This document shows, one piece after another, positions 10,109-55,319 of a DNA stretch of 60,194 nucleotides. A program made the position numbers and the translations under genes. The notes beneath the pieces were generated by a model. It did not search any database. It was not told the DNA's origin and saw only the letters and a program-made list of their open reading frames with translations. Position 1 is the first letter of the stretch; every line of letters starts with the position of its first letter. The DNA is taken from the IMG/VR virus record IMGVR_UViG_3300001450_000036, positions 1 through 60,194 of that record; one strand, written 5' to 3'. The DNA is from a virus.

Positions 10109-10459
10109 TTAAATTATGTAAGGTTTTAAAACATTTAAAGTATCCTCAGGCCCATCCATTGCTTGACCTAGTGGTGCTTGTGATTTGTCATTGACTGTTG
10201 GTAGGTACGTTTCCTCACCGTTATCGTCTTCTATAACTAGAACTGGGGTATACCATGATAGATTATGTTCTCTTTCTGCATCAATATAGTCCCATCTTGT
10301 GTTACCATTTTGTTTTTTTTGTTCTTCTGTAGCTACTGATATGCATCTATCTATAAATGGTATATTCTTTTCTTTTAATATTTTTTTTGTTTCTAAACAA
10401 TCATCACAAGAATCTTCAGTAAAGATAGACAATTTATATTTTTTAGTATTTAATTTCAA
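10109..10459 (-). CDS. Glutaredoxin/thioredoxin-fold protein, CDDC active site
   Basis: A 116-aa protein with a glutaredoxin-like beginning: strand (YKLSIFTE), active-site Cys18-Asp-Asp-Cys21, helix (ETKKILKEKNIPF), and a Thr-Pro at 71-72 (WYTPVLVIED) that fits the cis-Pro loop. Members reduce disulfides, including those of ribonucleotide reductases; the nrdJ-type reductase in this window is a plausible partner. The frame has no ATG before the active site. The start is taken as TTG at 10459, since an in-frame stop lies just upstream, so initiation is unusual. It follows the 185-aa gene by eight bases. Confidence 0.8.
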   Translation of the reverse strand: MKLNTKKYKLSIFTEDSCDDCLETKKILKEKNIPFIDRCISVATEEQKKQNGNTRWDYIDAEREHNLSWYTPVLVIEDDNGEETYLPTVNDKSQAPLGQAMDGPEDTLNVLKPYII

Positions 10460-30348: not shown

Positions 30349-33300
30349 TTATTTACAAGGTTCTTTTAAACTTATACATTTACCTAAAGATTCACACCAG
30401 TAGTAACCTGATTTACAAATCCCTAATTTATCAGCGTCACGTTCTTTTGTAGCACCTAGTAAATCCATACCTACTGGAGCATCTTTTTTGTCTTCATACA
30501 TAGTAGGTCCATCTCTTTCGTCTGTTATGTCTAGTGCACCACCTCTATCGTCTTCTTCACCAGAAGGTGTATCTGGTGGTGGAGGTGTAGTTTTTGCACA
30601 TTTTGCGTCACAAGCTTCTAAACTAGAATATATAGGTCCGTCATGAGGACCACCCTCATAAGGGAAACAAACACCACCAACACAAACATAACTAATGTTA
30701 TCTGTATGAACAGGGGGTTTTGCTCTAGGTCCACCCCTACCATCACCATCTACCACCCCTTCCTCGTTATCCAATACTGGTTCAGGTTTACCACCAGGAG
30801 GTCCAATAGGTGGTCGTGTTCCACTGTCAGTTTCACCACCCATCACACTAGTTATACCGTTAATTAATGTTGTACCAATAGGGGCTTTCTTAACTATAGT
30901 TCCATTTGCTTCTATAATAAAGTCATTACTATCACAATTCCCAACCATAACTGGTTTACAACTACTATACAAACTTTTACAATAAATTTCTGCTTCTTTA
31001 TAACATTCTTCACAATTTAATAATTCTAAATTAGTATAAACATCACTTACACCATATATTGGGTCTATCCCAATATCTTCAGCTATATCTTGGCCACATT
31101 TACAGTAATATTGACATCTAAAGTCACCGGCTAATGTTAAAGGTGCTGGGTTATAATGAGAATGACTAGATATTATTTTAATTTCTTTACCGTTTATTCT
31201 TATTTTTTTATTTACATTCACTAACCTCCAATTTTCTGGGGTATTTTTATGTAAAATATTATAAGCGGTGTTTACTTTTGCTGGTGAACATGGTTTATAA
31301 AAATTACAATCTGGTGTAACAACAATATAATGTTTAAGTTTATCACCAAACATATTTTTAAACGTATTCTCTATAATATAAGATTGATTAATTTGTGGAA
31401 AGGTAAAATCACATTTACCACCATAATCCATATTATAGGTAGGTAGATAGAAACAGAACTTTCCATCATCTTTCATTACAGTCATATTTTGTTTAGTACC
31501 TTGTGTTAGGGTGTAGTCTTTAATTTTATTAGTTTCTATAAGGTATTGCCATACGTTTGTTGGTGTGTTTATTTTTTTATTCCACACCAACATATCGTTA
31601 GGGCCTGTACTATCAATAAAACTCAAGTTATTAAAGTTTGTTTCGTCAACTGTAGGTCTAACTATATTCCCACACTCCTTATCACTTAAATATAGTGTAC
31701 CATCCAAGTGTACTTTTCTGGTTTCTCCATCATTAACCATATTAAAAGCTTTGGATTTATGTGTGGAGTCAAAGAATAATATTTTATTAGTAAAGTAATT
31801 ACCAACTTTTACCCCCCTAAACCAAGGTGCTTCCATAGTATTTCCGGATGAATCTAATTTATGTCCTAAATTAATAGTTAGATTACTAGTACCACCTGTT
31901 TCCCCAAAGTAATTCGATTTAGATGTTGCTGTCCAATTAGTATCATAATTTAAAGTTATAGATTGCCCACTTAATAAGTTTATAAGTCCTGTATCTATAG
32001 TTATTGGTATTTGTCTGTGAAAAATTGTTGATGACGATACCCCACTTAATATACAAGAGTTGCTCCCACTAAAAGATTTATCATTTTGGCTAACTGGTAG
32101 TGTAAGGTATTCGTTAGCCCCACCAAATATTTTGCTTCTTAGAACACTAAATTTCTTTAGTGTGGTAGTAGCTGTACTTCCCGAATTATACTTATCTAAA
32201 CTCACGGTAAAGTTAAAATTAAGTAACCCACTGTTTAATGGGATATTGGTTACAAGTTCTTCATCATTTCTCTTAAATTTATAACCTGGATGAAACTTAA
32301 ACTTGGTGTCTTGTATTACGGTCTTGGTTTCCCCTTCACCTGCTTGTATAATAGAAGTATTAATTAGTCTCTTTATTTCATAATCACTACTAGGGTAAGC
32401 ACCTGTAATATCTGATGGGTAAGCTCTTGTTAAATAATCACACCATTTTGTATCCGTATATTTTACATCTAGATATGCTTTATAAGTAAACCTATAAATT
32501 CCATTAGTGGTTGCTGTATAAGTAAAATAATCACCAGTTACTGCGTTATTTAGTATAATATTTCCTCCGTTTGGGTGGTAAGCTTCGCTAAAAGCGTAAG
32601 CTCTATAATTACGTGTTAAATCATCTATAAGTGGTAATGTTTTTTGGGGTACTATGTTAGATACTGGTATGCTGGTTCCCGCTGAAAAAGTGTTTCCAGT
32701 CATAAATAAATCATAGGTATGATTAGATTTATATCTATCAGTTGTAGTTGTTGTAAAGCCAGAATATATGGTGTCTGTTTTATTAGTATATGTCGTAAAT
32801 AAAAAATCTGTTTTACTATTAGCACTGATTGGTGCATAGTTAAAAAATTCTGTTAGGGTATCGTGGGGTTTACTGGTATGTTTTTTTCCTACCATAGGTA
32901 ACCCATCGTGTCTATGATAGTAACCAACATAGTCTTTACCTGCCAATGAAAATTTACCACCTTTAGTATATAGGTTATTCTGAATTCCTTCGTCTCCATT
33001 AATCCAAGTTTTTTTTCTTGGGCAACATAGTATAGTCTTTATAAGACCGTCACTAAAGTATGAAAATGTAATGTCGGAGAATTGGTCTAGTAAGGTTCTT
33101 TCTATCCATTGTGAAATTTTACTATACGTTCTTTTGGTGTTTCCAATTCTTCCATCCCCATTTATAGTAGGATAACTTTCAATATTACCAATTTGTTGTA
33201 ATTTTAATTTTTCCGAAAATGCAACTAATTGTTCTTTATTGGCAAATCTTAATGAATAACATCTATTAGAGTCCGTTACTCTATTATTATTAAAAAGTTC

Positions 33301-34260
33301 CTGTGCCCAATCTAACTGGTATATCTCTTTACCGTATTTAAAATATTTTTTACTCTCTTTAATTTCATTATCAAAAACGATTCTAGATACATTATATGGT
33401 ATTTGTACTACGTTATCTGGGGTTAAATTAAGATTACTTAAATTAACATCTGGGTTAAGTTTATTCTCTACAGCGTATACTTTACTATCAACTAAATTTA
33501 TAGAATCGGGTTGTGCGTTGAAGGGGAATAATTGTTTTTTATAGTCATGTATAACCTCTCTAGAGGCTAAATCTTTATTTTTTAAACTAATATATGTTGT
33601 ATCTAGTCTTATGTTTGGTGTGTCATTTATAATTTGTCTAGGTGGTATAATATCCATGACCGCACCTTTTACTGTTATAGTATCGTCCTTACTTATTTTT
33701 AAACCTAAGGAATTTATGTATTGGTTTTCACTTTCTATTAAAATGTCTAGGTCAAATGCTACGTTTTGGATTGTATTTCTATTCATCCTCACGTTAGGTA
33801 GTATCATTTGTAGTGCGTGTACTTTACCCCCTATTCTCTTTCCGAAACTTTTTAAAGCCCCACTACCACTACGACTACCATAAGATGGAGTAGCATCAAA
33901 ATAATTAGGGTGGGAAAGAAAAGCTCCCCATTTTTTACCTTTAACACTTTCAAAACCATACACCCCTTGTTTGTTATTAAAAACCTCCAATATTATATCT
34001 GATTTTGCAATAGTAAGTAAATTACTGGTATTGTGTATTTTTACATGACTTCTAGGGAACTTTAAAAATAACCTTTCAGTACCATCAGTTTGTGTTTTTA
34101 TCACTGCTTCTATAGGACGTATAGTATCGTATGTACATGTGAAAGCTTTTTGTTTATTAAAACCAACCCCATCTACTGTACCAGAGACATAAAAAATGAA
34201 CTCTAACTTATCAGCTAAAACTCTTAAATCTATTTTATTTTTATATACTTTAATTGCCAT
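30349..34260 (-). CDS. Giant virion protein with cysteine-repeat C-terminus, 1303 aa
   Basis: The first 1000 residues are mainly beta structure, beginning MAIKVYKNKIDLRVLADKLE with a conserved-looking jelly-roll-like block. About residues 950-1130 become Cys-rich (TPDCNFYKPCSP, CQYYCKCGQDIA, CEECYKEAEIYC). A Pro/Gly/Asp-rich linker follows. The end holds the YVCVGGVCFPYEGG...YSSLEACDAKC unit (about 1190-1220), the same repeat family as in the 2616-aa protein, and a terminal CKSGYYWCESLGKC segment. It lies between the 1101-aa and 1167-aa tail genes. It is probably a fibre whose tip shares an adhesive module with the giant cysteine protein. Confidence 0.72.
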   Translation of the reverse strand: MAIKVYKNKIDLRVLADKLEFIFYVSGTVDGVGFNKQKAFTCTYDTIRPIEAVIKTQTDGTERLFLKFPRSHVKIHNTSNLLTIAKSDIILEVFNNKQGVYGFESVKGKKWGAFLSHPNYFDATPSYGSRSGSGALKSFGKRIGGKVHALQMILPNVRMNRNTIQNVAFDLDILIESENQYINSLGLKISKDDTITVKGAVMDIIPPRQIINDTPNIRLDTTYISLKNKDLASREVIHDYKKQLFPFNAQPDSINLVDSKVYAVENKLNPDVNLSNLNLTPDNVVQIPYNVSRIVFDNEIKESKKYFKYGKEIYQLDWAQELFNNNRVTDSNRCYSLRFANKEQLVAFSEKLKLQQIGNIESYPTINGDGRIGNTKRTYSKISQWIERTLLDQFSDITFSYFSDGLIKTILCCPRKKTWINGDEGIQNNLYTKGGKFSLAGKDYVGYYHRHDGLPMVGKKHTSKPHDTLTEFFNYAPISANSKTDFLFTTYTNKTDTIYSGFTTTTTDRYKSNHTYDLFMTGNTFSAGTSIPVSNIVPQKTLPLIDDLTRNYRAYAFSEAYHPNGGNIILNNAVTGDYFTYTATTNGIYRFTYKAYLDVKYTDTKWCDYLTRAYPSDITGAYPSSDYEIKRLINTSIIQAGEGETKTVIQDTKFKFHPGYKFKRNDEELVTNIPLNSGLLNFNFTVSLDKYNSGSTATTTLKKFSVLRSKIFGGANEYLTLPVSQNDKSFSGSNSCILSGVSSSTIFHRQIPITIDTGLINLLSGQSITLNYDTNWTATSKSNYFGETGGTSNLTINLGHKLDSSGNTMEAPWFRGVKVGNYFTNKILFFDSTHKSKAFNMVNDGETRKVHLDGTLYLSDKECGNIVRPTVDETNFNNLSFIDSTGPNDMLVWNKKINTPTNVWQYLIETNKIKDYTLTQGTKQNMTVMKDDGKFCFYLPTYNMDYGGKCDFTFPQINQSYIIENTFKNMFGDKLKHYIVVTPDCNFYKPCSPAKVNTAYNILHKNTPENWRLVNVNKKIRINGKEIKIISSHSHYNPAPLTLAGDFRCQYYCKCGQDIAEDIGIDPIYGVSDVYTNLELLNCEECYKEAEIYCKSLYSSCKPVMVGNCDSNDFIIEANGTIVKKAPIGTTLINGITSVMGGETDSGTRPPIGPPGGKPEPVLDNEEGVVDGDGRGGPRAKPPVHTDNISYVCVGGVCFPYEGGPHDGPIYSSLEACDAKCAKTTPPPPDTPSGEEDDRGGALDITDERDGPTMYEDKKDAPVGMDLLGATKERDADKLGICKSGYYWCESLGKCISLKEPCK

Positions 34261-38504: not shown

Positions 38505-38726
38505 TTATGCTTCTTTTTCTATTTTATAAAACCCATAACCATGTAACGTTAATTCTCCCATATTTGGGGTTAAGTCTAGTCTTTGGGGTCTTTCAAAGAC
38601 AGTTATTTTACCTCTTTCGATAAATATGTTTGAGCGGGTTTCTGGTCTTTCACAAACGTTCATTAATACCTCTTCTTTTGTTAAAGGAGGAATACAACCA
38701 CCATATTTTACAATACCTAACCCCAT
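38505..38726 (-). CDS. Small virion-associated protein, 73 aa
   Basis: Starts MGLGIVKYGGCIPPLTKEEV. It has a short helix, then strands (NIFIERGKITVFERPQRLD) and GELTLHGYGFYKIE. It is the first gene after a TATTTATA element and is followed by the 305-aa gene with a three-base gap, so it heads the operon that carries the 305-, 1101-, 1303- and 1167-aa proteins. Its small beta-rich form would suit a baseplate adaptor, but no family is recognised. Confidence 0.62.
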   Translation of the reverse strand: MGLGIVKYGGCIPPLTKEEVLMNVCERPETRSNIFIERGKITVFERPQRLDLTPNMGELTLHGYGFYKIEKEA

Positions 38727-38785: not shown

Positions 38786-41700
38786 TTAAAATCCCAGTGA
38801 CCCACAAATAGGTGGTACTGTAGACCATCCCGCAGGACATGGTAATGAAGATACTGATGTTGTTTGAATAGCTGTACCCGTTTGTGTGGTTATACACTTA
38901 TAACATGTAATGTTGCTTACTACTGGTGGACATTTATCCCCATCTTCATCACAACCACAATTCATCCAACTGCCAGATATATCGGTTAACGTACCATTAA
39001 TTATTTGACACGGTATATTAGATACTTCAGACTCGTTGTTGTTGGTTCCATTCGCGTTATTTTTATTCACGCAACACCAACAACAACCGTCCTCCTTATT
39101 GGTTACACAGTCATTAATGTAGTAGTTATATAAACCGAGACTACTAGGATATGGTGTCCAATTTATAGGCCATACACTTAGATATGGTGCTAAATTTAAT
39201 GCACAACACTCACATTCTCCGTCAGGAAAACAAGGGTCACCATTAACATCAATACCACAAGTTTGCCAACCACCAAAAGTTCCTGATGAGGTAGTACCAA
39301 CATTTTGACTTGGTATGTTACCAGGTTTACATCTTATAGAATTAGGGTTAGAGCCCGAATTAACCCAACCTACGTTATCTAACAACACACAACAATAACA
39401 ACAATCATCAGTAGGGTCTATAACACAATCATTAACCGTAAAAGTACCTGCAACACTCCAATAACCTAAATGTACCGGTGGATATGAGGGTACTAAACTA
39501 AAGTAAGTACTTAAACTATTTAAACATTCGTCACACCCATCCCAACAATACTGTTGACAATCTTGTATTGTGGGATATTGACCACCTACTTGAGGTACAC
39601 AATTACCATTCACACATTCGTAATCTTTTGGTGCTACTTGTCCACAGGTTTCATCACATGGCCACCACACAGAAAAATGACCCCAGTTACTTTGGGTTGT
39701 AGTTACTGGTGTTGGTGCAAATACACTACTACCATCACAAGCTAATCCGTTTAAAAAATTATTATAACATAAAGATGGGTCGAAGAAACTAGTAGGGTCT
39801 ACAATTGTTCCTGTATCACTGACAGAAATATAACAACAACCATCAAGTGGGCTAAGTGTAACTTCGTTATACCCCCAAATTAATCCTGGTGCCCAATTAG
39901 TTACCCCACCAAAAGCATTACCTTGGACAGGGGTTGCCATAGAGGCTGCGTTATAAGGGGCCCATACTCCTTGAAATTCATTTTGTATTAGTGGGTGCCC
40001 TACTGTACCAATACAAGGTTTACATATAGGTGAGGTTGCACCCGTCCAACAACATTCGTCTGGGTCATTTAAACAATCAGCTAATGATGCATATTGACCC
40101 ATTGGTCCCGTTGGTATGCAATCACATTTAGTTGTAGATACTGTTTGTCCTGGTAAACCTAGAGTTGCTACAACTTTTTTTCTACAGTCATATCTTGTTG
40201 TAGAGGTTATACCTGTATTACAACAAGTGTGACTTTGTTTACACTCATCTAATGTAAAATAGGGACCAAATGGGTCTATAACACATTTACATAAATTATT
40301 ATTACCAACTTTACAATTCCACTTCTCGGTTGTTACCCCAGTCCAACAACAAGCTAATTGGTCAGCTTGGCACTGTATAATACTGGTGTATGGACCTAAT
40401 GGGTCTGGTATACAATTGCAAATACCTAAACCTGAATTATATTCACAACTATAGTTATCTGGTGTTACACCCGTCCAACAACATTTTCCTTGGTCTGTTT
40501 CACAATCATGTAAAGTAGAGTAGACACCAAAAGGGTCTGGATTACAATTACAATCTATAGGGTCACACGACCAACGCGTCTGTGTGCCTCCCGAACAACA
40601 TGTAATTGGGTCATTTTCACAATCACTTTGGTTATAATAATGAATAAGGGGGTTGTAACTAGTAATTGTATTATCAAATATACAGGTACATTGTTGTGCT
40701 CCTGTTGGTGCTAACACATTTTCACAACGCCAAAATCCACAACATGGGTCACTTAATAAACTTTGGTCACATTCTGCTTGAGAACTAAATTGTCCACCAA
40801 CACCCACTACGGATACACAGTTACATGGGTTGGCAGGACATAAACAATAATTACCACCAGCAGCTTGTCCCATGGTTCCACACACACTTGATAATAGTGC
40901 TCTTAACTGAAAAAAGTCCATACTAGTTGTTGCTGCTAACCCAGCGGCAACTAACTCATTAACCCATTGTTGTTTAGAATTAATATTAAATGGGAAGTAA
41001 TTCGACTGAAAAACTGGGTCATTAGGACAAGAGTAGAAGTTCACATATGCTGGTATCTGTAACGCGTCCCCGTTTGAACCTTCACAAGCTGAATTCGCGT
41101 TGGTTGAAGGGATAGTACCCTCATGATAAAAATCCGAAAATAGAGTTGCTGGGGGCACTCCGTTTACTGGGTCACATATCCATTGTACAGCTAGGTAGGT
41201 ACCACCACCACCTAAAGGTCCTCCAGGTATCAAAGTCTTACCAGCACAAGTACCAGGAGGTGGTGTTGTTGTTCCTGGGATACAATCATAAGTAAGTTGT
41301 TGTACTGGATTATTACAACTTGAGTTACATGGTATCCAAACTAAAGTACCAGTATTATTCGCGTTGACTCCTGGACCTGCTGGTCCAGGCCATACTGGGT
41401 TATTATTAACCAAATCATTAATGTAGTATTGGTAGTATGCACCTGGATTAAATATCCAAAGATTTGCTGGGTCATCGTCTACACAAACATAACAACATGA
41501 GTTACCATCCCAACTAGCAGTTACGACATCTCCTATAGAGTAGTTTGTACCACCCACCCATGCTGGTGCACTACCAACAAATGGTGTTACAGAAACTGAA
41601 CCAACTAACCAACTGTTCATTGGGTCGTCAAAGTAAGTGTAACTAACAGAACCTATTACAGAACATTCATAACAATCACAACACCCACTGTAAGAAGCAA

Positions 41701-44700
41701 AAAACGCGGTGGATGTTACACCAACAATACAGTCGTCTAAATTATAATATATAGGATTACACGTACCTGGAGGTTGTGGTCCCGCACAGAAACAGTCACT
41801 TATACAATCACCACAACCCCAAGTACAAACTGATTGACACGTCAATAAATCAACGTGTGGGCCCGAAACAAAAGTACTAGGTGGACTTGAACTAGTAAAA
41901 GCGGAACACCCTACTATCTCTAAACAATAAAAATCAGTTGTAGCTAAAGTACAAGGATATCCTATTGCGGAACCAGCAGTTGCTAGTTCACAAGCATATG
42001 GTGTTAATTCACTAGGTATGTTTGTACATGGACACATATTTATACCCCAATCTACATCATTACAATTAGATGTACCTGGAGGAGCACAATCACAACAATA
42101 TCTACAAAATTGTTCACAATCAGCTTGATTGGCAAACCCCACTCCCGCGAAACTATTGGTCACTTGTGCGTCAAAATATGTATTTGTTGGGTCGGATGGT
42201 CCTCCGGCTAATTGTCCAATAGCAGCTTGTTGATATAGTATGGTTTGTCCCGCGAAGTACGTACTATTTCTACAAGAGGATATTGGTACCGCTGCACTAT
42301 AGTCACCGTTTAATGCACCATATGTATCACACCACCACTCTTCTGGGGGTGCACAACAATCACAACTACTAAATGCTGCCCAACAATCAAAAGCATTATC
42401 ATAAGTGGTTGTTGCAACAGATAAAGCGTTAAATATACAATTACCTATACCAGTAGGTGGACAACCACATTCCCACGTACAATAATCTTGACAATCTTGT
42501 AAACTAGTAAAAGGTCCAGGATAACCTGGTGTGTTAGGTGGTACTATAACACAACCTAGACCAGCTACACCCGCTGTTATTTCACAATTAGACGAATAAT
42601 CACAATACCACGTATCCGCTGACGTACTACCAGAACAACAATCTATTACTCCTAACGAAGATATACATGCATCTAAAGATATGAAAGGGTATACTGGGTG
42701 CGTAGCACCTATTGGTACTGGTGGCCAAGTTGGGTAACCACCAAAAAATATACCTGTATTACTATTATTTATAAAATCTTGTAAAACCACACAATTAGTG
42801 GTGTCTGTTACTGGGTTTTCACAATAACACGATGCTCTACAATGTTCTTCACATGTATTACCTGTATAACAGTTTTGAGAGGCTTGGGTAAAGAGCGAGT
42901 TGTATACACATGAGGATGGAGTACATCCACTTGGTGTACATTCATAAGTTTGACTTGGTCCACCCCCACAAGGTTGACACCCTGCTGGTGGTAATCCTGG
43001 AGTTCCACCACAAGTTTCCCAAGGGTTTGGTGTACCGTTAGTTGCTGGTCCATCATCTGGTATAAAACAACTACAATCAAATGTTGTTATACAATCTGGT
43101 CCAGTCCCTAGTCCACCGAATCCCCATAGGGACGGCATCATACAAACATAACAACATAAAGGAGAATCTGCATCAGAATGATAAACTATATCATGTAATT
43201 CGTAGACAACACCTAACTGATATTGTCCTTGTGGTGTTAGAGTTGTACCACCTAAACCTATACTAACCATATAATCGTCACATGGACAAATACAGTCATC
43301 CACAGCACTTACTGAACAAACGTAATCCCCTAAAGAATTTAAAGCTAAATTACTAGTGCATTCCATCATAGTACAATAAGGTAAGAAAGGGTTTGTTCCG
43401 GTAGGGTCACATGAAGATGCAGCCGCAGCATTTACATATTGTACGTAATAACAAGGCCAGTTACCGGGTGGAAAAAGTTGTTGATTACCTGGTAGGGTAG
43501 CTAAAGCTTCGGTATCATCACATTCTGCGTGACAACATTCGGTTGCTTCACAGCACGCAGAGAAACTACTGTAACCAGTAAAACCAGGAGCTGGATTAGA
43601 AAATCCTAATAAATTTTGTGCCATATAATAGCCACTAACCCCATCTTGACAAAATGTGGGTCCTTGGTAATTGGTGCTACTAGGGTCTATATCTATAAAA
43701 CAATCCCAACCTGCGTTACAGGCACATAAAGTTTGACAATCTACGTTTCCTTGAGCTGAACCTGAGAACCAAGTTACATTATCTATAATTCCAGCACATG
43801 GACTTTGTAATGTACATGGTGTCATAGAAGTACAATCACAAACATAACATTGTTCTATTTGTGTACAATCAGCTGTACACGCAGAATAACCATACCCTGG
43901 ATAAGTTGTATTACTTGGGGATACCCATGGACCCCAACCACAATTACAATCATAGCACTCCACACAAGGTTGGTTTATGGTTTCACAAGACCAACCACAA
44001 GGAACTATACCCCCACCCATAGTTGCTGGGTCTTGTTGGCATTCTACTAGGTCTGCGTAAGTACCTCCAAAGGTTACCTGATAACACCCTGTACAACAAT
44101 CCCACTCGTAACCAGAGTAATCACAACATGCTGAAGTACTATATTGATACCCCAAATCAGTTGTAAATGCTGTACCAGCGTTACATGCTGATAATCCAAA
44201 ATCTGGTGTAAAATAAAATTGTTCATTAACAGCTAACCATTCATTTATTGTTAGTCCATTAGGTAAAAATCCTGGTACCGTACCTAGAACACTGGTTATT
44301 GTACTAGTGTACAATCCTGGTGTTGCATTTACATCATCTTCAGCACATGAGAATAATGTACAACATTCATTAGCGTTTGACGCTGTAGGAGTTGTACAAG
44401 AAAATGCTGGTGGATTACACCATCCTTCACACTCCATTTGTAAATTAAATACAGGTCCTGCTGATGGGTTTAATGGGTCAAAACTTGTATACGCGGAATG
44501 CGTAGAATCAATTTCTATACAACCTACACAATCATATTGATTTTCACAAACCCATTTATCTGGAAAACATTCACCATCATCAAAATCATCTTTACAATCT
44601 TCGTAGTATTGGTATCCCTGTAGAATATTAGTTGTGGTGGTTATTCCAGTACCAGGTACTAGTTCACAACCATATAATGGTATATTATCTAAGTCTTGAG

Positions 44701-46636
44701 GACAAATCCATGTTGAACATCCAACATACTCCCAATAAGTTGTTGAGGTAAAAGCTGTTGGTGGGTAGTTTGCACTATTTGCGGATAAAGCTTGGTAACA
44801 ATTGCCTTCTGGCCCTGTCACGAAACAACCTGGTAATATCCACGCTGCTCCATTAACATACTGACCTGCTGGGTCCCCGATATTTTGTCCACAATGATTT
44901 ATTGTAACATCATCACAAGGGGTTGATGTTCCTGGGGGGCAATTAACACAATCCGAAGAACATGCCTCCCAAATATGTTCCATTGGTATATTGTTTTGGT
45001 ACCACACCCCTTGTAGTGTCATAGAGGGTGGTATTCCCGCCCAATCAGAAGTAGTTGCTCCTGTCTGGAAAATATCTTTAACCGCCATAAAACAACAACA
45101 AGTATTGTAGGTTGTGTCAAATACTATGTCACCCACTTGATAGTCTGTGTATGGTGACCAAACACCTCTTTGACTATTAAAACTAATAGAGTTCCAAACT
45201 CCTGTTATCCTATCTATGTATTCGTCTTTAGTTTCACAAAAATCACAATCTTCTACTGTACACGCAAAACAATCATAAGCTCCGAAAGCCAAAGCATTTA
45301 GACCACAACTTTCAGCTACATATAGTGTTATACCATTAGTAAAATCATAAAAATCAATAGGGGTTTGGTTATTTGCAGATGATATAGTGTAAGCGGTGTA
45401 TATAGCATTTGCGGTATTAATATACCCATACATCCCAGTTTCTATATTATTTGTGTTGGGGTTAACAACGTCACCCCCGATAGGTACTATCGTACCATTG
45501 GTATATCCGGGAGGAAGAAATGGTGAGTTAGCTGTGGTATACGTTTGGAATGCTCCTAGAAGACTTTCTGTTACCCCGGTAACTTCGAAACAATCTGGGA
45601 ATTGTGTCATTCCTGTATATTCATTAATATCAGTACCACTGTCCCACGCTATATAATCCCCTTGACCTAAAACACCAGATGGAGCAGAAGTGTATCCAGT
45701 ACCTATAGTTTGACCTGATGCGTTAATCGTTAAAGCACTACTAGGTGGTATCCCCCCTATAGCAGCTAGTTGATTGTAAGTATAGTTAGGTGCGGTAATA
45801 ATTTGAGATATGGATGTTGGCCCCCATGGTGTGTCTTGGGTTATTTTAATTCTATATTGTACTGGTGCTCCCCCACCATACTGATGAGAGGCTGAAACAA
45901 CACCACTATTATAACTTAGTGTTGTTGATGGTAGACCATCCCCCCAGTCAATCGTAAAAGGTAAATTTTGTAATTCTTTATAATAACTAAAATCTGTAGT
46001 GTTAGTAATTTTTATAGTGTCACCAGGAAACGCACCAGTGCTTGCTGTGAAAACAAAATTAGAGAAGTTGTCTTTTTGACTTACGTTACCATCCCAAAGT
46101 GAATAGTGTCCAATATCATTAAAGTCCTGTGAAATAAATAATGTTATGTTATTAAGGTATGGGTCTAAACCATTTTCACAATTACAAGGCCCAATATTAT
46201 AATTAATATTATATTGGGAGGTTATGTTAATTGGTCGATTAAAGTCTACTCTTAAAGACTCAAATAGGGTGATAACATTATTGTAACTTTCTCCCGTCAC
46301 TATGGTAGTAGCTAAACTATCTACCACATTTATCCCATAAAATGCTTTATAAGCATAATTTCCTATATTTTTACAATGTCCACTAGTTGCAGAAGTATAT
46401 AAATCCCACAGTATAATACACGGATTAGTAAAAGAACAATCTCGTAATTCTAAAGGAAAAGTCCTTATATCCCCACTTAAAGCGTTTAGAAGTTGTGACC
46501 CTGTTGAGTTGTACATACTCATTCCTGAACAATCAATACTTTTGTTAATTGGCCAGTAATTAGTACCACCACTACATGGTAAAGAAGTGTAAACGTCTGG
46601 ATTAGTTCTTTTTATTCTAAAATTTAGTTTTTCCAT
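38786..46636 (-). CDS. Giant cysteine-rich repeat adhesin-like virion protein, 2616 aa
   Basis: N-terminal beta domains include a PKD-like module (TIDWGDG...SHQY, about 225-265). From about residue 450 the protein is extremely Cys-rich (over 200 Cys by eye). Its repeat is roughly (W/Y)-x-C-x(3-12)-C-x-C-x-P-x-G-x-Y-x-(S/T)-L-x-x-C-x(5-7)-CC, clearest at about 1965-2210 (CNPDPFGVYSTLHDC, KCCWTGVT). Interspersed are carbohydrate-binding CBM5/12-like units (WSPYTDYQVGDIVFD near 490; WVGGTNYSIGDVVTA near 1690; others near 2222, 2394, 2495). There is no signal peptide or membrane anchor. A multivalent, disulfide- or metal-stabilised glycan-binding fibre is the best inference. Confidence 0.75.
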   Translation of the reverse strand: MEKLNFRIKRTNPDVYTSLPCSGGTNYWPINKSIDCSGMSMYNSTGSQLLNALSGDIRTFPLELRDCSFTNPCIILWDLYTSATSGHCKNIGNYAYKAFYGINVVDSLATTIVTGESYNNVITLFESLRVDFNRPINITSQYNINYNIGPCNCENGLDPYLNNITLFISQDFNDIGHYSLWDGNVSQKDNFSNFVFTASTGAFPGDTIKITNTTDFSYYKELQNLPFTIDWGDGLPSTTLSYNSGVVSASHQYGGGAPVQYRIKITQDTPWGPTSISQIITAPNYTYNQLAAIGGIPPSSALTINASGQTIGTGYTSAPSGVLGQGDYIAWDSGTDINEYTGMTQFPDCFEVTGVTESLLGAFQTYTTANSPFLPPGYTNGTIVPIGGDVVNPNTNNIETGMYGYINTANAIYTAYTISSANNQTPIDFYDFTNGITLYVAESCGLNALAFGAYDCFACTVEDCDFCETKDEYIDRITGVWNSISFNSQRGVWSPYTDYQVGDIVFDTTYNTCCCFMAVKDIFQTGATTSDWAGIPPSMTLQGVWYQNNIPMEHIWEACSSDCVNCPPGTSTPCDDVTINHCGQNIGDPAGQYVNGAAWILPGCFVTGPEGNCYQALSANSANYPPTAFTSTTYWEYVGCSTWICPQDLDNIPLYGCELVPGTGITTTTNILQGYQYYEDCKDDFDDGECFPDKWVCENQYDCVGCIEIDSTHSAYTSFDPLNPSAGPVFNLQMECEGWCNPPAFSCTTPTASNANECCTLFSCAEDDVNATPGLYTSTITSVLGTVPGFLPNGLTINEWLAVNEQFYFTPDFGLSACNAGTAFTTDLGYQYSTSACCDYSGYEWDCCTGCYQVTFGGTYADLVECQQDPATMGGGIVPCGWSCETINQPCVECYDCNCGWGPWVSPSNTTYPGYGYSACTADCTQIEQCYVCDCTSMTPCTLQSPCAGIIDNVTWFSGSAQGNVDCQTLCACNAGWDCFIDIDPSSTNYQGPTFCQDGVSGYYMAQNLLGFSNPAPGFTGYSSFSACCEATECCHAECDDTEALATLPGNQQLFPPGNWPCYYVQYVNAAAASSCDPTGTNPFLPYCTMMECTSNLALNSLGDYVCSVSAVDDCICPCDDYMVSIGLGGTTLTPQGQYQLGVVYELHDIVYHSDADSPLCCYVCMMPSLWGFGGLGTGPDCITTFDCSCFIPDDGPATNGTPNPWETCGGTPGLPPAGCQPCGGGPSQTYECTPSGCTPSSCVYNSLFTQASQNCYTGNTCEEHCRASCYCENPVTDTTNCVVLQDFINNSNTGIFFGGYPTWPPVPIGATHPVYPFISLDACISSLGVIDCCSGSTSADTWYCDYSSNCEITAGVAGLGCVIVPPNTPGYPGPFTSLQDCQDYCTWECGCPPTGIGNCIFNALSVATTTYDNAFDCWAAFSSCDCCAPPEEWWCDTYGALNGDYSAAVPISSCRNSTYFAGQTILYQQAAIGQLAGGPSDPTNTYFDAQVTNSFAGVGFANQADCEQFCRYCCDCAPPGTSNCNDVDWGINMCPCTNIPSELTPYACELATAGSAIGYPCTLATTDFYCLEIVGCSAFTSSSPPSTFVSGPHVDLLTCQSVCTWGCGDCISDCFCAGPQPPGTCNPIYYNLDDCIVGVTSTAFFASYSGCCDCYECSVIGSVSYTYFDDPMNSWLVGSVSVTPFVGSAPAWVGGTNYSIGDVVTASWDGNSCCYVCVDDDPANLWIFNPGAYYQYYINDLVNNNPVWPGPAGPGVNANNTGTLVWIPCNSSCNNPVQQLTYDCIPGTTTPPPGTCAGKTLIPGGPLGGGGTYLAVQWICDPVNGVPPATLFSDFYHEGTIPSTNANSACEGSNGDALQIPAYVNFYSCPNDPVFQSNYFPFNINSKQQWVNELVAAGLAATTSMDFFQLRALLSSVCGTMGQAAGGNYCLCPANPCNCVSVVGVGGQFSSQAECDQSLLSDPCCGFWRCENVLAPTGAQQCTCIFDNTITSYNPLIHYYNQSDCENDPITCCSGGTQTRWSCDPIDCNCNPDPFGVYSTLHDCETDQGKCCWTGVTPDNYSCEYNSGLGICNCIPDPLGPYTSIIQCQADQLACCWTGVTTEKWNCKVGNNNLCKCVIDPFGPYFTLDECKQSHTCCNTGITSTTRYDCRKKVVATLGLPGQTVSTTKCDCIPTGPMGQYASLADCLNDPDECCWTGATSPICKPCIGTVGHPLIQNEFQGVWAPYNAASMATPVQGNAFGGVTNWAPGLIWGYNEVTLSPLDGCCYISVSDTGTIVDPTSFFDPSLCYNNFLNGLACDGSSVFAPTPVTTTQSNWGHFSVWWPCDETCGQVAPKDYECVNGNCVPQVGGQYPTIQDCQQYCWDGCDECLNSLSTYFSLVPSYPPVHLGYWSVAGTFTVNDCVIDPTDDCCYCCVLLDNVGWVNSGSNPNSIRCKPGNIPSQNVGTTSSGTFGGWQTCGIDVNGDPCFPDGECECCALNLAPYLSVWPINWTPYPSSLGLYNYYINDCVTNKEDGCCWCCVNKNNANGTNNNESEVSNIPCQIINGTLTDISGSWMNCGCDEDGDKCPPVVSNITCYKCITTQTGTAIQTTSVSSLPCPAGWSTVPPICGSLGF

Positions 46637-47545: not shown

Positions 47546-49337
47546 CACTATACATGTTTAAAATATTTATGGTACTTGCACTGTACTCGGGTAGTGTTAG
47601 TATTGGCCCTATAGGTTCAATCATAAATTCCAAAGTATGACTAGGATAATGTGCGTCATTAAGATATGGGTAAGTTACTCCATTTTTTTCTTCTTCAAAA
47701 TAACCAACAGGTAGTAATGGACGCCATCTAAACGTACCTTCAACTAAAGAATAAGTAGAGTATTGTGGTGATGTAAATAGTGTATCATTAAAATTAATAC
47801 CGTTAGATAACTTTCTTATCGGTATACGATGATGAGGTTGGTACTTGTATAGGGATTTTATGTACGGGTTGGATTGACTTCCTGACCCTAGAGCTGCGGG
47901 GTTAAATTTAAGTGAGTGCCCCAACTCCGATATTACCCTTTCTTTTATTTCATATGGGTTATACTCAACAAAAGCACCCCTATATGTTGTACCACTAACA
48001 GGTAGTGGGTCTACCCCATTTGTATTTGTTTGAATTATGTTTGTTGGGTTAGTTCCATTATTTACGAACGGGTCTATAAAACCGTTTTTTCTAAAATTCC
48101 AACCCCAACCATAACCACAAGGTGAATTTCCACTTTCATAATCCCAAATTAAATTTCTATTACTAGCAAGAATAGTTAGGTATAAATCAATTACTGGACG
48201 ATTTAGATTATCATAATACATACTTCTATCTATATCTTCAGTTATGGTCCACAAAAAAGATTTAAACTCCTCCTTAATTACTGTTTTTCCTGGATATCCC
48301 GGGGGGGTTTTACGGCCTTTAAATACCCTACCTTTTCTATTATATATCCCATTTTCAAACCCTGTTCTACCTAAGGTGTAGTCTCTGGGGTTGGTTATTA
48401 GTTTATGTTCATGAGTATAGTACTCACTTTTAGTTTCTGGGTTTTGTGGGTTCACAAATCTTTTTAGTACACCAACCCCATTTGTTGGCATTGCGGTACC
48501 ACCCCCAGCATTAATAGTTGTATTAATTAATCCTCGTGTGTTTATGTTTATTATATACTTATCGGAACCCGCTAGTTCATTACCTAGTGAGTCTACTTCA
48601 AACAAAGTTTGTACTCTCGTGTTCAGAGTACCAAAAACATTTACTTGTAAAACAATACTCCCAATAAAATCTACACCCCCAAAAGAAAATGTTTGACCAC
48701 CTACTTCAGGTTGTAATTCTATGTACTCCCCAGGTATCAATCCGTGAGGTACTGGGGTTGTTATTCTTAAAATTTCTTTTCCTTGGTCGTGGGTTACCTC
48801 TAAGTCAAAAGGAATCCCACTACTAGATATAAAATTTAGTCCTTGGTTTGGATTATAGTTACTATAGTAGGTCATGTGTTGACTTGTATTAGCAGAGTGA
48901 ACATATGATATATATAATAACCAGTTATCTTGAAAGCTCACTAAATCCTCATAGTTAAATGTTTTAGTTGATGGTCCAAATGGCCCAGGAGGCATAAAAT
49001 CAAAAGTTTTTGCTGGGGGTAACCCTAAACATGGGGCGTTATTACACCCTATAAAGTCAGGTAAAAAGTACATACTTTCTAAAGAATCCACATCAGAAGT
49101 TACTCCTGTTATTATATTTTCATATAACACATCTATTTTACCGTACAATCTATAAAATTGGGAGTAGTCACGTTCAAAATTAAATTGTTCTACAACATTT
49201 AATACTCTATTTCTATCACCTTGTATTAAAGTTCTTTTTTCCGAAGTAATTAATGGTTGTAGGGATACGTCAAAATCTTTAGCTCCTTTATATTTGGAAC
49301 TACCTTTTACTATCCTTATGTTTTTTCTATTACTCAT
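47532..49337 (-). CDS. Virion structural protein, 601 aa
   Basis: Begins MSNRKNIRIVKGSSKYKGAK. Mixed beta-rich body with many aromatic and Gly/Pro turns (GPFGPSTKTFNYEDLVSF; GYPGKTVIKEEFKSFLW). A region at about 190-240 looks like a small beta barrel (HGLIPGEYIELQPEVGGQ). No catalytic motif, signal or membrane segment. The start overlaps the stop of the 1193-aa gene by one base and the end overlaps the next gene, showing tight co-translation in the tail run. Its precise baseplate or tail role is not recognised. Confidence 0.66.
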   Translation of the reverse strand: MSNRKNIRIVKGSSKYKGAKDFDVSLQPLITSEKRTLIQGDRNRVLNVVEQFNFERDYSQFYRLYGKIDVLYENIITGVTSDVDSLESMYFLPDFIGCNNAPCLGLPPAKTFDFMPPGPFGPSTKTFNYEDLVSFQDNWLLYISYVHSANTSQHMTYYSNYNPNQGLNFISSSGIPFDLEVTHDQGKEILRITTPVPHGLIPGEYIELQPEVGGQTFSFGGVDFIGSIVLQVNVFGTLNTRVQTLFEVDSLGNELAGSDKYIININTRGLINTTINAGGGTAMPTNGVGVLKRFVNPQNPETKSEYYTHEHKLITNPRDYTLGRTGFENGIYNRKGRVFKGRKTPPGYPGKTVIKEEFKSFLWTITEDIDRSMYYDNLNRPVIDLYLTILASNRNLIWDYESGNSPCGYGWGWNFRKNGFIDPFVNNGTNPTNIIQTNTNGVDPLPVSGTTYRGAFVEYNPYEIKERVISELGHSLKFNPAALGSGSQSNPYIKSLYKYQPHHRIPIRKLSNGINFNDTLFTSPQYSTYSLVEGTFRWRPLLPVGYFEEEKNGVTYPYLNDAHYPSHTLEFMIEPIGPILTLPEYSASTINILNMYSDGCQ

Positions 49338-52300
49338 TAGACTACTGTATCAGATAATTCTTCATCAACATATAACCTAATAAAAGTATTATATGACGTT
49401 GCTCCTGGTCTCAAACCAAAGTAATAAAATAGTGGTTGTGAGAAATTTATTTGACTTGCACTATCGGGGGTAAGAATTGGGAACTGAGTTGCTCCGGTAA
49501 ATCCTATATCAAATCCCATGTTATTTTGGAAGGATGATGCTGGTGGTAAATTATTATAGGTAAATGTTACCCCTGGTGTTAAACTTAATCCAGGCACAAT
49601 AGACATTCCTTGAGCGGGTGCTATAGCCATTCTATTAGCGTATTTACCTGTTGTGTACATCCAATCATTAAAAGTACCTCCAAAACCTGAACCTGGACTA
49701 CGTATAATCCAAGGATAAAAAGGTACTGTTTGACTACTAGCAGACAAATCTAATGTAGCACAATTAATTAAATCTTCACCACTCATCATTATTTGAGTTG
49801 ATGAGGTAAATAATAGTGGTTCCCATTGAATAACTGCTGAACCACCAAAACTCATCGTACCCCAATCAACATTAATAGCGTTATCAACATAAGTCCCATC
49901 AATGTCGTTAGCTGGTGGATATTCCATACCTGGAATAGGTAATAATGTATCGGTAGGAGATTGGCAATCACATACGGTTTGACTCATATTAGTTTCATAC
50001 CCAAACACACCTAACATACAATTTTGCATCAATGCTTGTGCCATATCACCACCTATTTCTTTTTCTGGTCTACTAAACATAGTCTCCTTCATAAAACTTG
50101 GACTATATTGTTTTAGGTTATATGAATCTGCCACCAAATCAGTTATGTTTTGGAATGTTGTACTACCTATTTGGTCGGTTATTGAACATTCCTCAGCATA
50201 TGATGGGTCTAAACATATTTGTTGTATACATTGATTTCTAGAACCCATATCTGTCATAGTAGTAGGAAATAATATATGTCTGTCCATATCTCCTTTTGAG
50301 TGTAGGTCGTCTGATTGGTTCCCACTTTGGAACCATAGGGACATTACTCCGTCAGTATCCCCTAAAAAGTTACCGGTACTTGCTCCCATAACTCTAAATG
50401 GTGTTGACCTGTAATAAAACACATTGTCTATCGGGTGGAGGTACACCACTTTTCTACAAAATTTAGAATCTACCATGTAGGTGTCATTTGTTTCTCCATT
50501 CCAAAACGCGGTATATCCGTTTGTTGTTAATTCTAATTTTGCTTTAAATTGGAATTGGTATAAGAATCCACTTACCCAATTATTTTCCCAGAAATAATTC
50601 ATTATTCCGTTACATAAAGCTGATGATAATTTTTCTCTTTTTGTCCACTCGTATAAAACTCTCATGTCTAGATTTTCTAATAAACATGCAGGGTTAAAAC
50701 ATATTATTTTAACATAACACCCACCAGCAGCATAACCATCACTAACAGTACTAGGTGAATATACTTCAGAGTTAAACCCGTAAGTATTAGCACAACAAAC
50801 TACATCTTCTGATGTTTCACTCGGGGGACTTGTAGGGTAAACTCCTTGTCCACAACAATCATGAGACCATTTCATTTCTATACCCATTCCACCTGCACCC
50901 GCTGCATTCCCAACAGGACATGGTGCTACTGCTGCTGTAGAACCACTACTAGGTACACCGTCTGGACAAGGTGCGTTTTGTGACAATATATCAAATTCAC
51001 CACTAGCTGAAGGTCTACACGAACATTTTTCACATTCTGGGTATTTTGTTTGTCTTAAAGAAAACAAAACAAAACCAATTCTTAGACCAAAATACATACA
51101 CTCAATACCACAACCAAAACCAGTTAGATTTATTTGTCCACAAAGTTGTGGTGGTGTGGGGGCAAAATTACTAAAATTTAAGACTGTAAAGAAGGTGTTA
51201 AATGGCCATCCTAAATATATTCCTAGGGTTAAACCATACACCCAACACCATAGTGAACAAAATGCGAATATAATAAACAACACTATCCCTAATATCAAAC
51301 CTAATATTACAGCAAGTAAACTTACTACTAAATTTACCAATAGGTATATCATACCTAAAAAACTTATAAAGAAATCATTTAGATATAACACAAATTTCAT
51401 TCTTCTAACTGCACTATTGACTGGGAAGAACATTGCTGAGGTTGCACATTGTTGTTCCATTTCTGGTAAAATTTCTTTTATACCTATAAACTGTCTTCTA
51501 CCGTTATGTTTAACATGGTCATGAAATTGAGCACATGTATATACTCGATTAAATGTCATGTCATAAAAGACATCTTCTGCACCCGGCATAAGATGTCGTT
51601 GAGCGTAACCATGATAATCAGAGTAATCTATAGAAAAAGCATAACTTCTTGGGTCAATTCCAGGCCAATCTCCATCGTTATTTGATTGGGTGTTAAATTC
51701 TCTGATGTTAGGTACTAGATGTGCACCTGACCGTCTTTGTCTTGCACTACCCCTAGTTTGTTCGGGTTTAACCCTAAATCTACATCTTGACCTAGTAGGT
51801 ACTCCTTTGGTGGGGTCTTTTGATAGTACTAGGTCACCAAACTCATTAGTTATTACATGGTCCAAATTCATTGGTACATGCACTAAAAAGGCTCCGTCAT
51901 TATCAATTACCCTACCCCCATTTTCAAAATAAAACCGTTCTAGTACTGGTACTTTCCCACCAATGGGTGGTCCAGTATAAGTCTCACCGTCATAGGTTGG
52001 GAAAGCTTTGGGGTCATCTTTAAAAAAGGGTGTATACCTTATACAGTCTATAATACCTGGTTGTGTTATTATACTACATAACTCACCCATGTGTCTTTTG
52101 GGACGACATTGTCTATTAATTGAGTCTTTATCTGTATCTTGTGCGGTACTTCCCATAAATACAGATGTCGGTTCTAACTTAAATCCGGAATTACCTAAAT
52201 CAAAGTCTACTCTTGTAATCGCCGCTCTACATTGTTCTTCGTCACCCCAAAAAGGTTTGATGTCAATTGTTTTAGTTTGGTTTACAATTTGTGGTAGAGA

Positions 52301-52918
52301 ATCTATTTCAGAATCTGTCCTAAATTGTGGTCCATCAAAATCTGACTCTGGAAATCCTTTAAGTTTAAAATCTTGTGGTAATAAAGAAAAACAACCTATA
52401 TCACTTAAATCCACGTCCATGACTATGTTTTGAGAGCCGTTAGGGACTCCGTATATCATAAAGTCACCGGATTCATTAGTTTTTACCGTAAATTTATAAT
52501 ATTTGTCATATATGTATTTTACTTCTTGTTGTGTTAGTACTGAATTTAGTGTTGGAAAACTACCTACTGCTGTATGACAATCAAAGTTTTTTTCTGAACT
52601 TAGTAGATTGTACCTAACACCATCTTCGTTTTTTTCATATGGTTGTTTGTATGGGTATAAAAATTTAACCACTTCATTATCTTCGTCCTCCTCTTGTAGG
52701 GGAATAAAAATAGATACTTTTGCGTTAGGGATACCAAATCCATTATTTGCTGTTACCCTACCGACTACCACACCAAAATCAGCACACATCCTCGTATACA
52801 CTTCTTGTTGCGTTAAAGAAAGACTAAGAATCTCTAATAAATCAAATTTTTGATTTAATTCAAAAGTTACATTCTTATCTTTACCTACTTCTGTTCTTAC
52901 TCTAAAAGATTTACTCAT
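49337..52918 (-). CDS. Virion protein with N-terminal Ig-like domain and internal membrane-like segment, 1193 aa
   Basis: Residues about 45-170 form a carboxypeptidase-regulatory-like/Ig module (VVVGRVTANNGFGIPNAKVSI, then TVKTNESGDFMIYGVPNG), common in Bacteroidota surface proteins. Near 505-580 there is a long hydrophobic run (FLGMIYLLVNLVVSLLAVI, then LGLILGIVLFIIFAFCSLW) followed by another near 605-620. The latter is bracketed by Cys clusters (CGIECMYF and CEKCSCRP), and more Cys pairs follow (CCGQG, VVCCAN). Both halves are otherwise soluble and beta-rich. Such a segment in a tail protein could insert into a host membrane at infection (inference). It follows the gp6-like gene after 99 bases. 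Confidence 0.72.
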   Translation of the reverse strand: MSKSFRVRTEVGKDKNVTFELNQKFDLLEILSLSLTQQEVYTRMCADFGVVVGRVTANNGFGIPNAKVSIFIPLQEEDEDNEVVKFLYPYKQPYEKNEDGVRYNLLSSEKNFDCHTAVGSFPTLNSVLTQQEVKYIYDKYYKFTVKTNESGDFMIYGVPNGSQNIVMDVDLSDIGCFSLLPQDFKLKGFPESDFDGPQFRTDSEIDSLPQIVNQTKTIDIKPFWGDEEQCRAAITRVDFDLGNSGFKLEPTSVFMGSTAQDTDKDSINRQCRPKRHMGELCSIITQPGIIDCIRYTPFFKDDPKAFPTYDGETYTGPPIGGKVPVLERFYFENGGRVIDNDGAFLVHVPMNLDHVITNEFGDLVLSKDPTKGVPTRSRCRFRVKPEQTRGSARQRRSGAHLVPNIREFNTQSNNDGDWPGIDPRSYAFSIDYSDYHGYAQRHLMPGAEDVFYDMTFNRVYTCAQFHDHVKHNGRRQFIGIKEILPEMEQQCATSAMFFPVNSAVRRMKFVLYLNDFFISFLGMIYLLVNLVVSLLAVILGLILGIVLFIIFAFCSLWCWVYGLTLGIYLGWPFNTFFTVLNFSNFAPTPPQLCGQINLTGFGCGIECMYFGLRIGFVLFSLRQTKYPECEKCSCRPSASGEFDILSQNAPCPDGVPSSGSTAAVAPCPVGNAAGAGGMGIEMKWSHDCCGQGVYPTSPPSETSEDVVCCANTYGFNSEVYSPSTVSDGYAAGGCYVKIICFNPACLLENLDMRVLYEWTKREKLSSALCNGIMNYFWENNWVSGFLYQFQFKAKLELTTNGYTAFWNGETNDTYMVDSKFCRKVVYLHPIDNVFYYRSTPFRVMGASTGNFLGDTDGVMSLWFQSGNQSDDLHSKGDMDRHILFPTTMTDMGSRNQCIQQICLDPSYAEECSITDQIGSTTFQNITDLVADSYNLKQYSPSFMKETMFSRPEKEIGGDMAQALMQNCMLGVFGYETNMSQTVCDCQSPTDTLLPIPGMEYPPANDIDGTYVDNAINVDWGTMSFGGSAVIQWEPLLFTSSTQIMMSGEDLINCATLDLSASSQTVPFYPWIIRSPGSGFGGTFNDWMYTTGKYANRMAIAPAQGMSIVPGLSLTPGVTFTYNNLPPASSFQNNMGFDIGFTGATQFPILTPDSASQINFSQPLFYYFGLRPGATSYNTFIRLYVDEELSDTVV

Positions 52919-54860: not shown

Positions 54861-55319
54861 TTATAAATTTATTATAACAAAATCTTTAGTTTCAAAAAAC
54901 CCATCCCCAGCACTATAATCAATACGTACTCTCATAGTATATTCTCTCTCATCTTCCCCAATAAAACTAAAACTATTATCGTTTATATTATCAGAAGTAT
55001 TATTTTTTTCTTCCAATCTTATATCTTCTGCGGTTTTAATATCAATCTTATTGACGACTAGGTTAGGCATGAATTTTTCTACCGCGTCTTTAATTTCATT
55101 ATTAATACCTACCCTTGTTGTTGTATCCATAGGTTCATAAATATACTTCATCAAATTTGTACCAAAATCTGGTAAAAAATACCTACTACCCTTAATAGTT
55201 AGAATTAAATGTATTAGACTAGACTTTACCTCAGAATTGGTTGTACTGTTTAATCCTAGAAAGAATCCTTCATTACTATCCGTAAATGGAAATGTTATAC
55301 CGTACTTTTGATTGGGCAT
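54861..55319 (-). CDS. Baseplate wedge protein, gp25-like (GPW/gp25 family)
   Basis: A 152-aa protein with the family pattern: N-terminal polar stretch, then SSLIHLILTIKGSRYFLPDF, in which the 'L-x-L-x-x-x-x-G-x-R-x-x-x-P-x-F-G' block (about 37-55) is diagnostic. GTNLMKYIYEP and a helix with AVEKFMPNLVVNKIDI follow. gp25 nucleates the sheath and joins the baseplate wedge. It has an acidic insert before the last strands (EEKNNTSDNINDNS). A GTATTTATTA element lies nine bases upstream of the ATG, so it appears to head the whole tail run. Confidence 0.9.
   Translation of the reverse strand: MPNQKYGITFPFTDSNEGFFLGLNSTTNSEVKSSLIHLILTIKGSRYFLPDFGTNLMKYIYEPMDTTTRVGINNEIKDAVEKFMPNLVVNKIDIKTAEDIRLEEKNNTSDNINDNSFSFIGEDEREYTMRVRIDYSAGDGFFETKDFVIINL

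What the first reader, a model, noticed from the sequence alone, without database searches (positions are those of the whole stretch)
38786..46636. A 2616-aa cysteine-rich phage protein with PKD-like, CBM5/12-like and repeated C-x-C...GxYxSLxxC...CC units
The protein has over 200 cysteines by eye, arranged in a recurrent unit of about 45 residues that I cannot assign to a named domain. Between the units are blocks with the 'W-x(3-6)-Y-x-x-G-D-x-V' pattern of chitin/cellulose-binding CBM5/12 modules. Tail fibres rarely carry this much cysteine, because virions assemble in a reducing cytoplasm. Either the cysteines bind metal (for example zinc) or disulfides form after lysis, hardening the fibre in seawater-like conditions. 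This is the best candidate here for an undescribed virion adhesion system.
Basis: partly seen in the sequence, partly recalled or inferred. Interest (0 to 1): 0.8.

Follow-up and report, generated by a model that had tools for sequence, protein, structure and literature searches.

The report
Giant disulfide-rich phage tail adhesin
An uncultured phage, probably of Bacteroidota, carries a 2,616-residue baseplate-region protein with 220 cysteines that are kept almost without exception and change in pairs; it looks like a disulfide-stapled chain of sugar-binding-like modules inserted into a small, otherwise cysteine-free tail protein.

Summary
The 38786-46636 (minus) ORF encodes 2616 aa with 220 Cys (8.4%), about seven CBM5/12-like modules, a PKD-like domain and five clear tandem six-Cys units. 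Relatives exist only in uncultured viral contigs. Among four close homologs 218/220 Cys are invariant; across distant ones Cys is by far the most conserved residue. Where Cys change they change in local pairs (p about 0.001; seven control residues not significant) and His rarely replaces them: disulfides, not metal. Profile comparison (E 1e-33) shows that aa 154-467 are the core of a short (about 359 aa), practically Cys-free protein found in hundreds of related phages. That protein's C-terminal 'FIERGK' segment is here a separate 73-aa gene directly behind P0001 (38505-38726). So about 2,100 aa of Cys-rich modules were inserted into a conserved baseplate-cluster protein in one clade. Best reading: a disulfide-hardened, multivalent glycan-binding baseplate adhesin, oxidised after lysis. 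Cysteine density and insertion history are new; the kind (phage adhesin) is known. Virion location, disulfides and ligand remain untested by experiment, and AlphaFold confidence was low (pLDDT about 56).

The parts
38786..46636 (-). 2616-aa Cys-rich protein P0001 (220 Cys)
   Evidence: homologs in viral contigs only; none in phages or genome collections
46157..46636 (-). aa 1-160: N-terminal domain special to this clade (7 Cys; best-predicted stretch of the model)
   Evidence: pLDDT about 58-86 for most of aa 23-150; Cys invariant in 12 homologs
45236..46159 (-). aa 160-467: conserved core, homologous to the complete short (359-465 aa) protein of distant relatives
   Evidence: hhalign prob 99.9, E 1.3e-33; 77 full-length short forms of 340-379 aa, 76 of them without Cys
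45782..46105 (-). aa 178-285: PKD-like beta-sandwich
   Evidence: Foldseek to PKD domains prob 0.98, VIA Z 6-7; Pfam PKD sub-threshold in L014 and L039 homologs only
44942..45166 (-). aa 491-565: CBM5/12-like module 1
   Evidence: CBM_5_12 sub-threshold; profile top PDB hit 3wx7 CBM12
44717..44872 (-). aa 589-640: CBM5/12-like module 2
   Evidence: VIA to 3wx7 331-380: Z 6.1, rmsd 1.4 A, 48 aa; profile A9 top PDB hits = chitin oligosaccharide deacetylase CBM12
43004..43216 (-). aa 1141-1211: CBM5/12-like module 3
   Evidence: family HMM E 5e-4
41309..41566 (-). aa 1691-1776: CBM5/12-like module 4
   Evidence: family HMM E 8e-18
40742..41269 (-). aa 1790-1965: fastest-evolving stretch among close relatives (dN/dS about 0.4-0.5; 48-56% identity against 81-97% N-terminal of it)
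40040..40732 (-). aa 1969-2199: five tandem six-Cys units
39641..39898 (-). aa 2247-2332: CBM5/12-like module 5 (weak)
   Evidence: family HMM E 4e-5
39242..39466 (-). aa 2391-2465: CBM5/12-like module 6
   Evidence: family HMM E 9e-11
38945..39166 (-). aa 2491-2564: CBM5/12-like module 7
   Evidence: family HMM E 5e-13
38505..38726 (-). 73-aa ORF, the split-off C-terminal 'FIERGK' segment of the ancestral short protein
   Evidence: conserved behind the big gene in the relatives that cover it; fused in short forms and at the end of the second Cys-rich protein in L039-L045
53018..54859 (-). gp6/baseplate-J-like wedge protein (gene context)
   Evidence: PHROG baseplate wedge E 4e-17, Pfam Baseplate_J, tree
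54861..55319 (-). gp25-like baseplate wedge protein (gene context)
   Evidence: Pfam GPW_gp25 E 1.2e-10, PHROG

Best explanation
The gene encodes a giant baseplate-attached adhesin. Its core (aa 160-467, PKD-like) is a conserved structural protein of a large phage group, and probably holds the chain on the baseplate. Behind it, about 2,100 residues of small disulfide-stapled modules (about seven CBM5/12-like ones plus six-Cys units) were inserted in one clade, and the original C-terminal segment became a separate 73-aa gene. The chain is probably made reduced in the cytoplasm, carried on the virion, and locked by roughly 100 mainly local disulfides once lysis exposes it to oxygenated water. 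It then serves as a long, stable, multivalent binder of host-surface or particle polysaccharide. Shown here: Cys conservation, paired Cys change, core homology and insertion history, modular make-up. Inferred: virion location, post-lysis oxidation, glycan binding.
For: 220 Cys, 8.4%; 218/220 invariant at 82-86% identity; mean conservation of Cys 0.89 against 0.57 for P and W across homologs at 34-60% identity. Cys columns with the same presence pattern lie near each other: 14 pairs within 60 aa, 5.5 expected, p 0.0016 (12 against 3.5 within 30 aa, p 0.001); no such signal for W, P, Y, G, F, D, N. Examples: 582/604, 930/947, 1167/1205, 1718/1821, 848/897, 1182/1190. His replaces Cys in only 2 of 87 cases. 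Core homology to the short, Cys-free protein at the same gene position, split-off FIERGK segment, single clade on the gp6 tree. Gene lies in the gp25/gp6-like baseplate cluster. CBM12 of chitin oligosaccharide deacetylase is top PDB hit of two profiles and a fold match. Conserved N-terminal part and faster C-terminal third, as in adhesins. Precedent for virion disulfides: phage Milano (PMC10811340).
Against: No module passes Pfam's CBM_5_12 cut-off. Both AlphaFold models are low confidence (pLDDT 56), so pairings and folds are not verified in three dimensions. Some homologs have odd Cys totals (197, 181, 227, 243), so not every Cys need be in an intrachain pair. No proteome shows the protein in a virion. 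No Erv/ALR oxidase was found in the contigs, and glutaredoxin/thioredoxin genes, which are common in phages, tell nothing.
Confidence: 0.6

Rival explanations
1. The cysteines bind metal (zinc ribbons or clusters) rather than forming disulfides.
For: Dense CxC, CxxC and CC motifs; proteins made in a reducing cytoplasm often use Zn to stabilise small domains (general knowledge).
Against: Cys change in twos, not fours; His hardly ever replaces Cys (2 of 87); whole protein has 19 His; no zinc-finger family hit in Pfam or NCBIfam.
Confidence: 0.1
2. A non-adhesive hardening or spacer element: the stapled chain only stiffens or protects the tail, and the CBM-like folds bind nothing.
For: Disulfide locking stabilises the Milano tail (PMC10811340); CBM similarity is below curated cut-offs.
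Against: Retained W-Y-GD-V-W pattern in the modules across the clade; C-terminal third varies faster than the rest, not expected of a pure spacer.
Confidence: 0.2
3. The protein is not a virion part but acts in or on the host (for example secreted or surface-exposed late in infection).
For: No proteomics; extracellular-type disulfide-rich modules are usual in secreted proteins.
Against: No hydrophobic signal sequence at the N-terminus (sequence); gene sits between baseplate-cluster genes in all relatives; its core is conserved at the same gene place in other phages.
Confidence: 0.08

Closest known systems
Short (about 359 aa) core protein of related uncultured phages, and the PKD-containing phage protein A0A6J5L9U6
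   Same: Homologous over P0001 aa 154-467 (BFVD hit E 6e-12, 28% id); same gene position before the 302-305-aa 'RPADV' protein in L014-L016
   Different: No Cys and no modules; FIERGK segment still fused
Carbohydrate-binding module family 5/12 (CBM12 of chitin oligosaccharide deacetylase, PDB 3wx7)
   Same: Order of W, Y, GD-V, aromatic, P, W; top PDB profile hits; fold match 1.4 A over 48 aa
   Different: Modules here carry conserved CC/CxC pairs and long insertions; below the Pfam cut-off
Agrobacterium phage Milano disulfide-locked tail (PMC10811340)
   Same: Disulfide-rich virion proteins in the tail/baseplate
   Different: Milano has 2.1% Cys in structural proteins with intersubunit bonds in sheath and baseplate; here 8.4% in one modular protein with mostly local pairs
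Sister clade L039-L048 split form
   Same: Same core; a second Cys-rich protein (48-55 Cys) ends in the FIERGK segment
   Different: Second protein has other modules ('GCTDPxAxNYNPxAxxDDGSCxY' repeats); core protein only 540-644 aa with 17-27 Cys

Membership tests
CBM family 5/12 (PF02839) | profile score above Pfam's gathering cut-off | tested here: not met
   best 12.4 bits in P0001 module 1, 22.0 bits in homolog L035; cut-off 26.2
CBM family 5/12 (PF02839) | fold of the small CBM5/12 beta module | tested here: inconclusive
   aa 589-640 against 3wx7 331-380: Z 6.1, rmsd 1.4 A over 48 aa, but model confidence is moderate
CBM family 5/12 (PF02839) | ordered aromatic pattern W..Y..GD.V..Y..P..W | tested here: met
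   family alignment of modules
CBM family 5/12 (PF02839) | binds chitin or another polysaccharide | not testable with these tools
   needs pull-down or glycan array
PKD domain | Pfam PKD profile above cut-off | tested here: not met
   no hit in P0001; weak hits in L014 (E 0.027) and L039 (E 0.1) only
PKD domain | PKD beta-sandwich fold | tested here: inconclusive
   Foldseek prob 0.98 to several PKD domains; VIA Z 6.1-7.3, under the level the tool calls safe
Phage baseplate adhesin (receptor-binding protein) | gene within the tail/baseplate cluster | tested here: met
   gp25- and gp6-like genes 6.4 kb and more upstream, conserved gene order in relatives
Phage baseplate adhesin (receptor-binding protein) | conserved N-terminal attachment part, variable C-terminal part | tested here: met
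   dN/dS and identity by region; core shared with short forms
Phage baseplate adhesin (receptor-binding protein) | present in virion and binds host | not testable with these tools
   no proteome or assay available
Zinc-binding Cys protein | Cys ligands lost in fours or replaced by His | tested here: not met
   paired loss, 2 His among 87 replacements
Kunitz-type domain (considered for the six-Cys unit) | Kunitz fold with its disulfide pattern | tested here: inconclusive
   three Kunitz-type chains among six VIA rows, Z 2.8-3.4 only, model pLDDT about 60

The most novel reading that the evidence does not exclude
A redox-staged virion adhesin: a 2,000-residue chain assembled reduced in the cytoplasm and stapled by about 100 disulfides only after lysis into oxic water, created by inserting cysteine-rich glycan-binding modules into a cysteine-free baseplate protein.
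Probability: 0.4. Interest if true: 0.78.

Novelty: new variant of a known kind. Interest (0 to 1): 0.62.

Why it matters
If right, it shows that phages can build very large disulfide-dependent extracellular proteins although virions assemble in a reducing compartment, and it makes the question 'when and how do phage virions oxidise?' directly testable on one protein. It also gives a clear case history (short Cys-free core, split gene, giant insert) of how a tail protein acquires new binding modules.

Tried and rejected
Direct annotation of P0001 by Pfam, PHROGs, NCBIfam and PDB sequence search gave nothing. tblastn in cultured phages found no relative of P0001, of its tandem units, of the short core protein or of the 73-aa gene; genome contigs gave none. 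Chance or composition as the source of the cysteines was rejected by their conservation. Metal binding was rejected as the main reading. A Kunitz relation of the tandem unit is only a weak lead. Foldseek of the C-terminal model (aa 1925-2616) gave no hit with E below 1. A phage-coded Erv/ALR sulfhydryl oxidase was looked for and not found in 16 contigs, most of them fragments. Scanning with the tandem unit found no protein of other architecture. Papers searched gave no description of such a protein; the library lacks most subscription journals.

Full report
Observation. The ORF at 38786-46636 on the minus strand is intact, 2616 aa, with 220 Cys. The window is a 60,194-base IMG/VR virus record. 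The other proteins of the window hold 0-4.6% Cys, this one 8.4%; the next structural ones are the 259-aa dockerin-bearing protein (4.6%) and the 1193-aa baseplate-region protein (3.0%). For comparison, Milano's structural proteins hold 2.1% and T4 proteins 0.9% (PMC10811340).

Relatives. No hit in Pfam, PHROGs, NCBIfam, PDB sequences, annotated phages or the prokaryote genome contigs (the contig scans work by short peptide patterns and can miss distant relatives). In IMG/VR, first three close homologs (82-86%), then through the neighbours and through an alignment of five homologs a family of full or partial proteins: L021 (60%), L026, L023/L032, L024, L025/L030, L034/L035 and L038 (34-43%), 2440-2966 aa with 181-243 Cys where complete.

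Cysteines. Four close homologs share 218 of 220 Cys; the two that vary, 1718 and 1821, are lost together in L001/L002. Against L021, 57% identical outside Cys, 210 of 220 are kept and 20 of the kept codons differ silently. In the whole family Cys is 89% conserved on average, P and W 57%, all others lower. Variable Cys columns with identical presence patterns cluster within 30-60 residues more than when patterns are dealt out anew among positions (12 against 3.5 and 14 against 5.5 pairs; p 0.001 and 0.0016); seven control residues show no such effect. Clear pairs: 582/604, 848/897, 930/947, 1167/1205 (absent together both in the window clade and in L025), 1182/1190, 1718/1821. This is what disulfide partners do; zinc sites would go in fours or exchange with His, which is rare here (2 of 87). 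Caveats: rows are related, the test covers aa 1-1800 only, and some homologs have odd totals. 1718 is also lost in L021 without a clean partner.

Modules. A profile from the family finds six CBM5/12-like modules, and a seventh variant lies at aa 589-640. Two separate module profiles both rank the CBM12 repeats of chitin oligosaccharide deacetylases first in the PDB (E 0.18 and 0.35, weak alone), and the model of aa 589-640 superposes on the same protein's CBM12 (3wx7; Z 6.1, 1.4 A over 48 residues). That this stretch of 3wx7 is a CBM12 is my own knowledge of the entry. The Pfam model is approached (22 of 26.2 bits in L035) but not reached. The tandem unit (five copies, aa 1969-2199; six Cys each) is predicted as hairpin plus short helix at low confidence; its copy number differs among homologs, and Kunitz-type chains among its few fold matches (Z about 3) are no more than a lead. 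aa 178-285 look PKD-like at fold level.

Origin. In distant relatives (L014-L016) the same gene place holds a 359-465-aa protein with 0-3 Cys. hhalign joins it to P0001 aa 154-467 with E 1.3e-33. A scan with that short protein finds at least 465 loci; of the best 80, 77 are complete, all are 340-379 aa, 76 lack Cys altogether and 76 hold the 'FIERGK' segment. In the window clade that segment is a separate 73-aa ORF right behind the big gene, 38505-38726, below the 100-aa limit of the first ORF scan. In the sister clade L039-L048 the core protein is 540-644 aa, and a second, differently built Cys-rich protein carries the FIERGK end. On a gp6 tree with cultured outgroups, the short form branches first and the two Cys-rich states are each one clade (97/99 and 97/100; the deeper fork 85/95; only one short row and long outgroup branches). 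The simplest history is insertion of Cys-rich modules between core and end segment, with a gene split; loss in the short lineages is less likely, since they are far more widespread in the collection.

Function. Position in a gp25/gp6-like baseplate cluster, a conserved core, a faster-evolving C-terminal third (dN/dS mostly 0.3-0.5 against mostly 0.03-0.2 N-terminal of it) and sugar-module-like units point to a baseplate adhesin. Nearly no Shine-Dalgarno sites (2 of 39 genes), a gp6 related to that of Flavobacterium phages among the few cultured matches (27%) and SprB repeats in a tail protein of the related L015 point to a Bacteroidota host. Oxidation after lysis is inferred: there is no signal sequence, and no dedicated oxidase was found.

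Verdict. A real, strongly selected and unusual protein; a new variant of a known kind (modular phage tail adhesin). Its disulfide nature is well supported by evolution but needs chemistry; its ligand is a guess guided by weak but consistent CBM5/12 similarity.

Noticed in passing
window 49337-52918 (-): 1193-aa baseplate-region protein with 36 Cys and a long, strongly hydrophobic, membrane-like stretch in its middle next to a Cys-rich segment; 32-41 Cys in homologs.
   Followed up: no
window 23562-24341 (-): Tail-region protein with a dockerin type I hit above Pfam's cut-off and 12 Cys; odd for a phage.
   Followed up: no
window 30349-34260 (-): Another tail protein holds a single 'CVGGVC...GPIYSSLEACDAKC' unit near its C-terminus, like the units of P0001.
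   Followed up: no
window 10109-10459 (-): Glutaredoxin-like ORF (CDDC motif, Pfam just below cut-off); glutaredoxin-like genes also in six of 16 related contigs.
   Followed up: partly
L024 17327-17962 and L025 17948-18526: An extra ORF of 192-211 aa, nucleotidyltransferase-like by eye, sits between the big gene and the 73-aa gene.
   Followed up: no
L039 11655-14375, L041 11396-13681, L043 11682-14498: Second Cys-rich protein with repeated 'GCTDPxAxNYNPxAxxDDGSCxY' motifs, no Pfam hit.
   Followed up: partly
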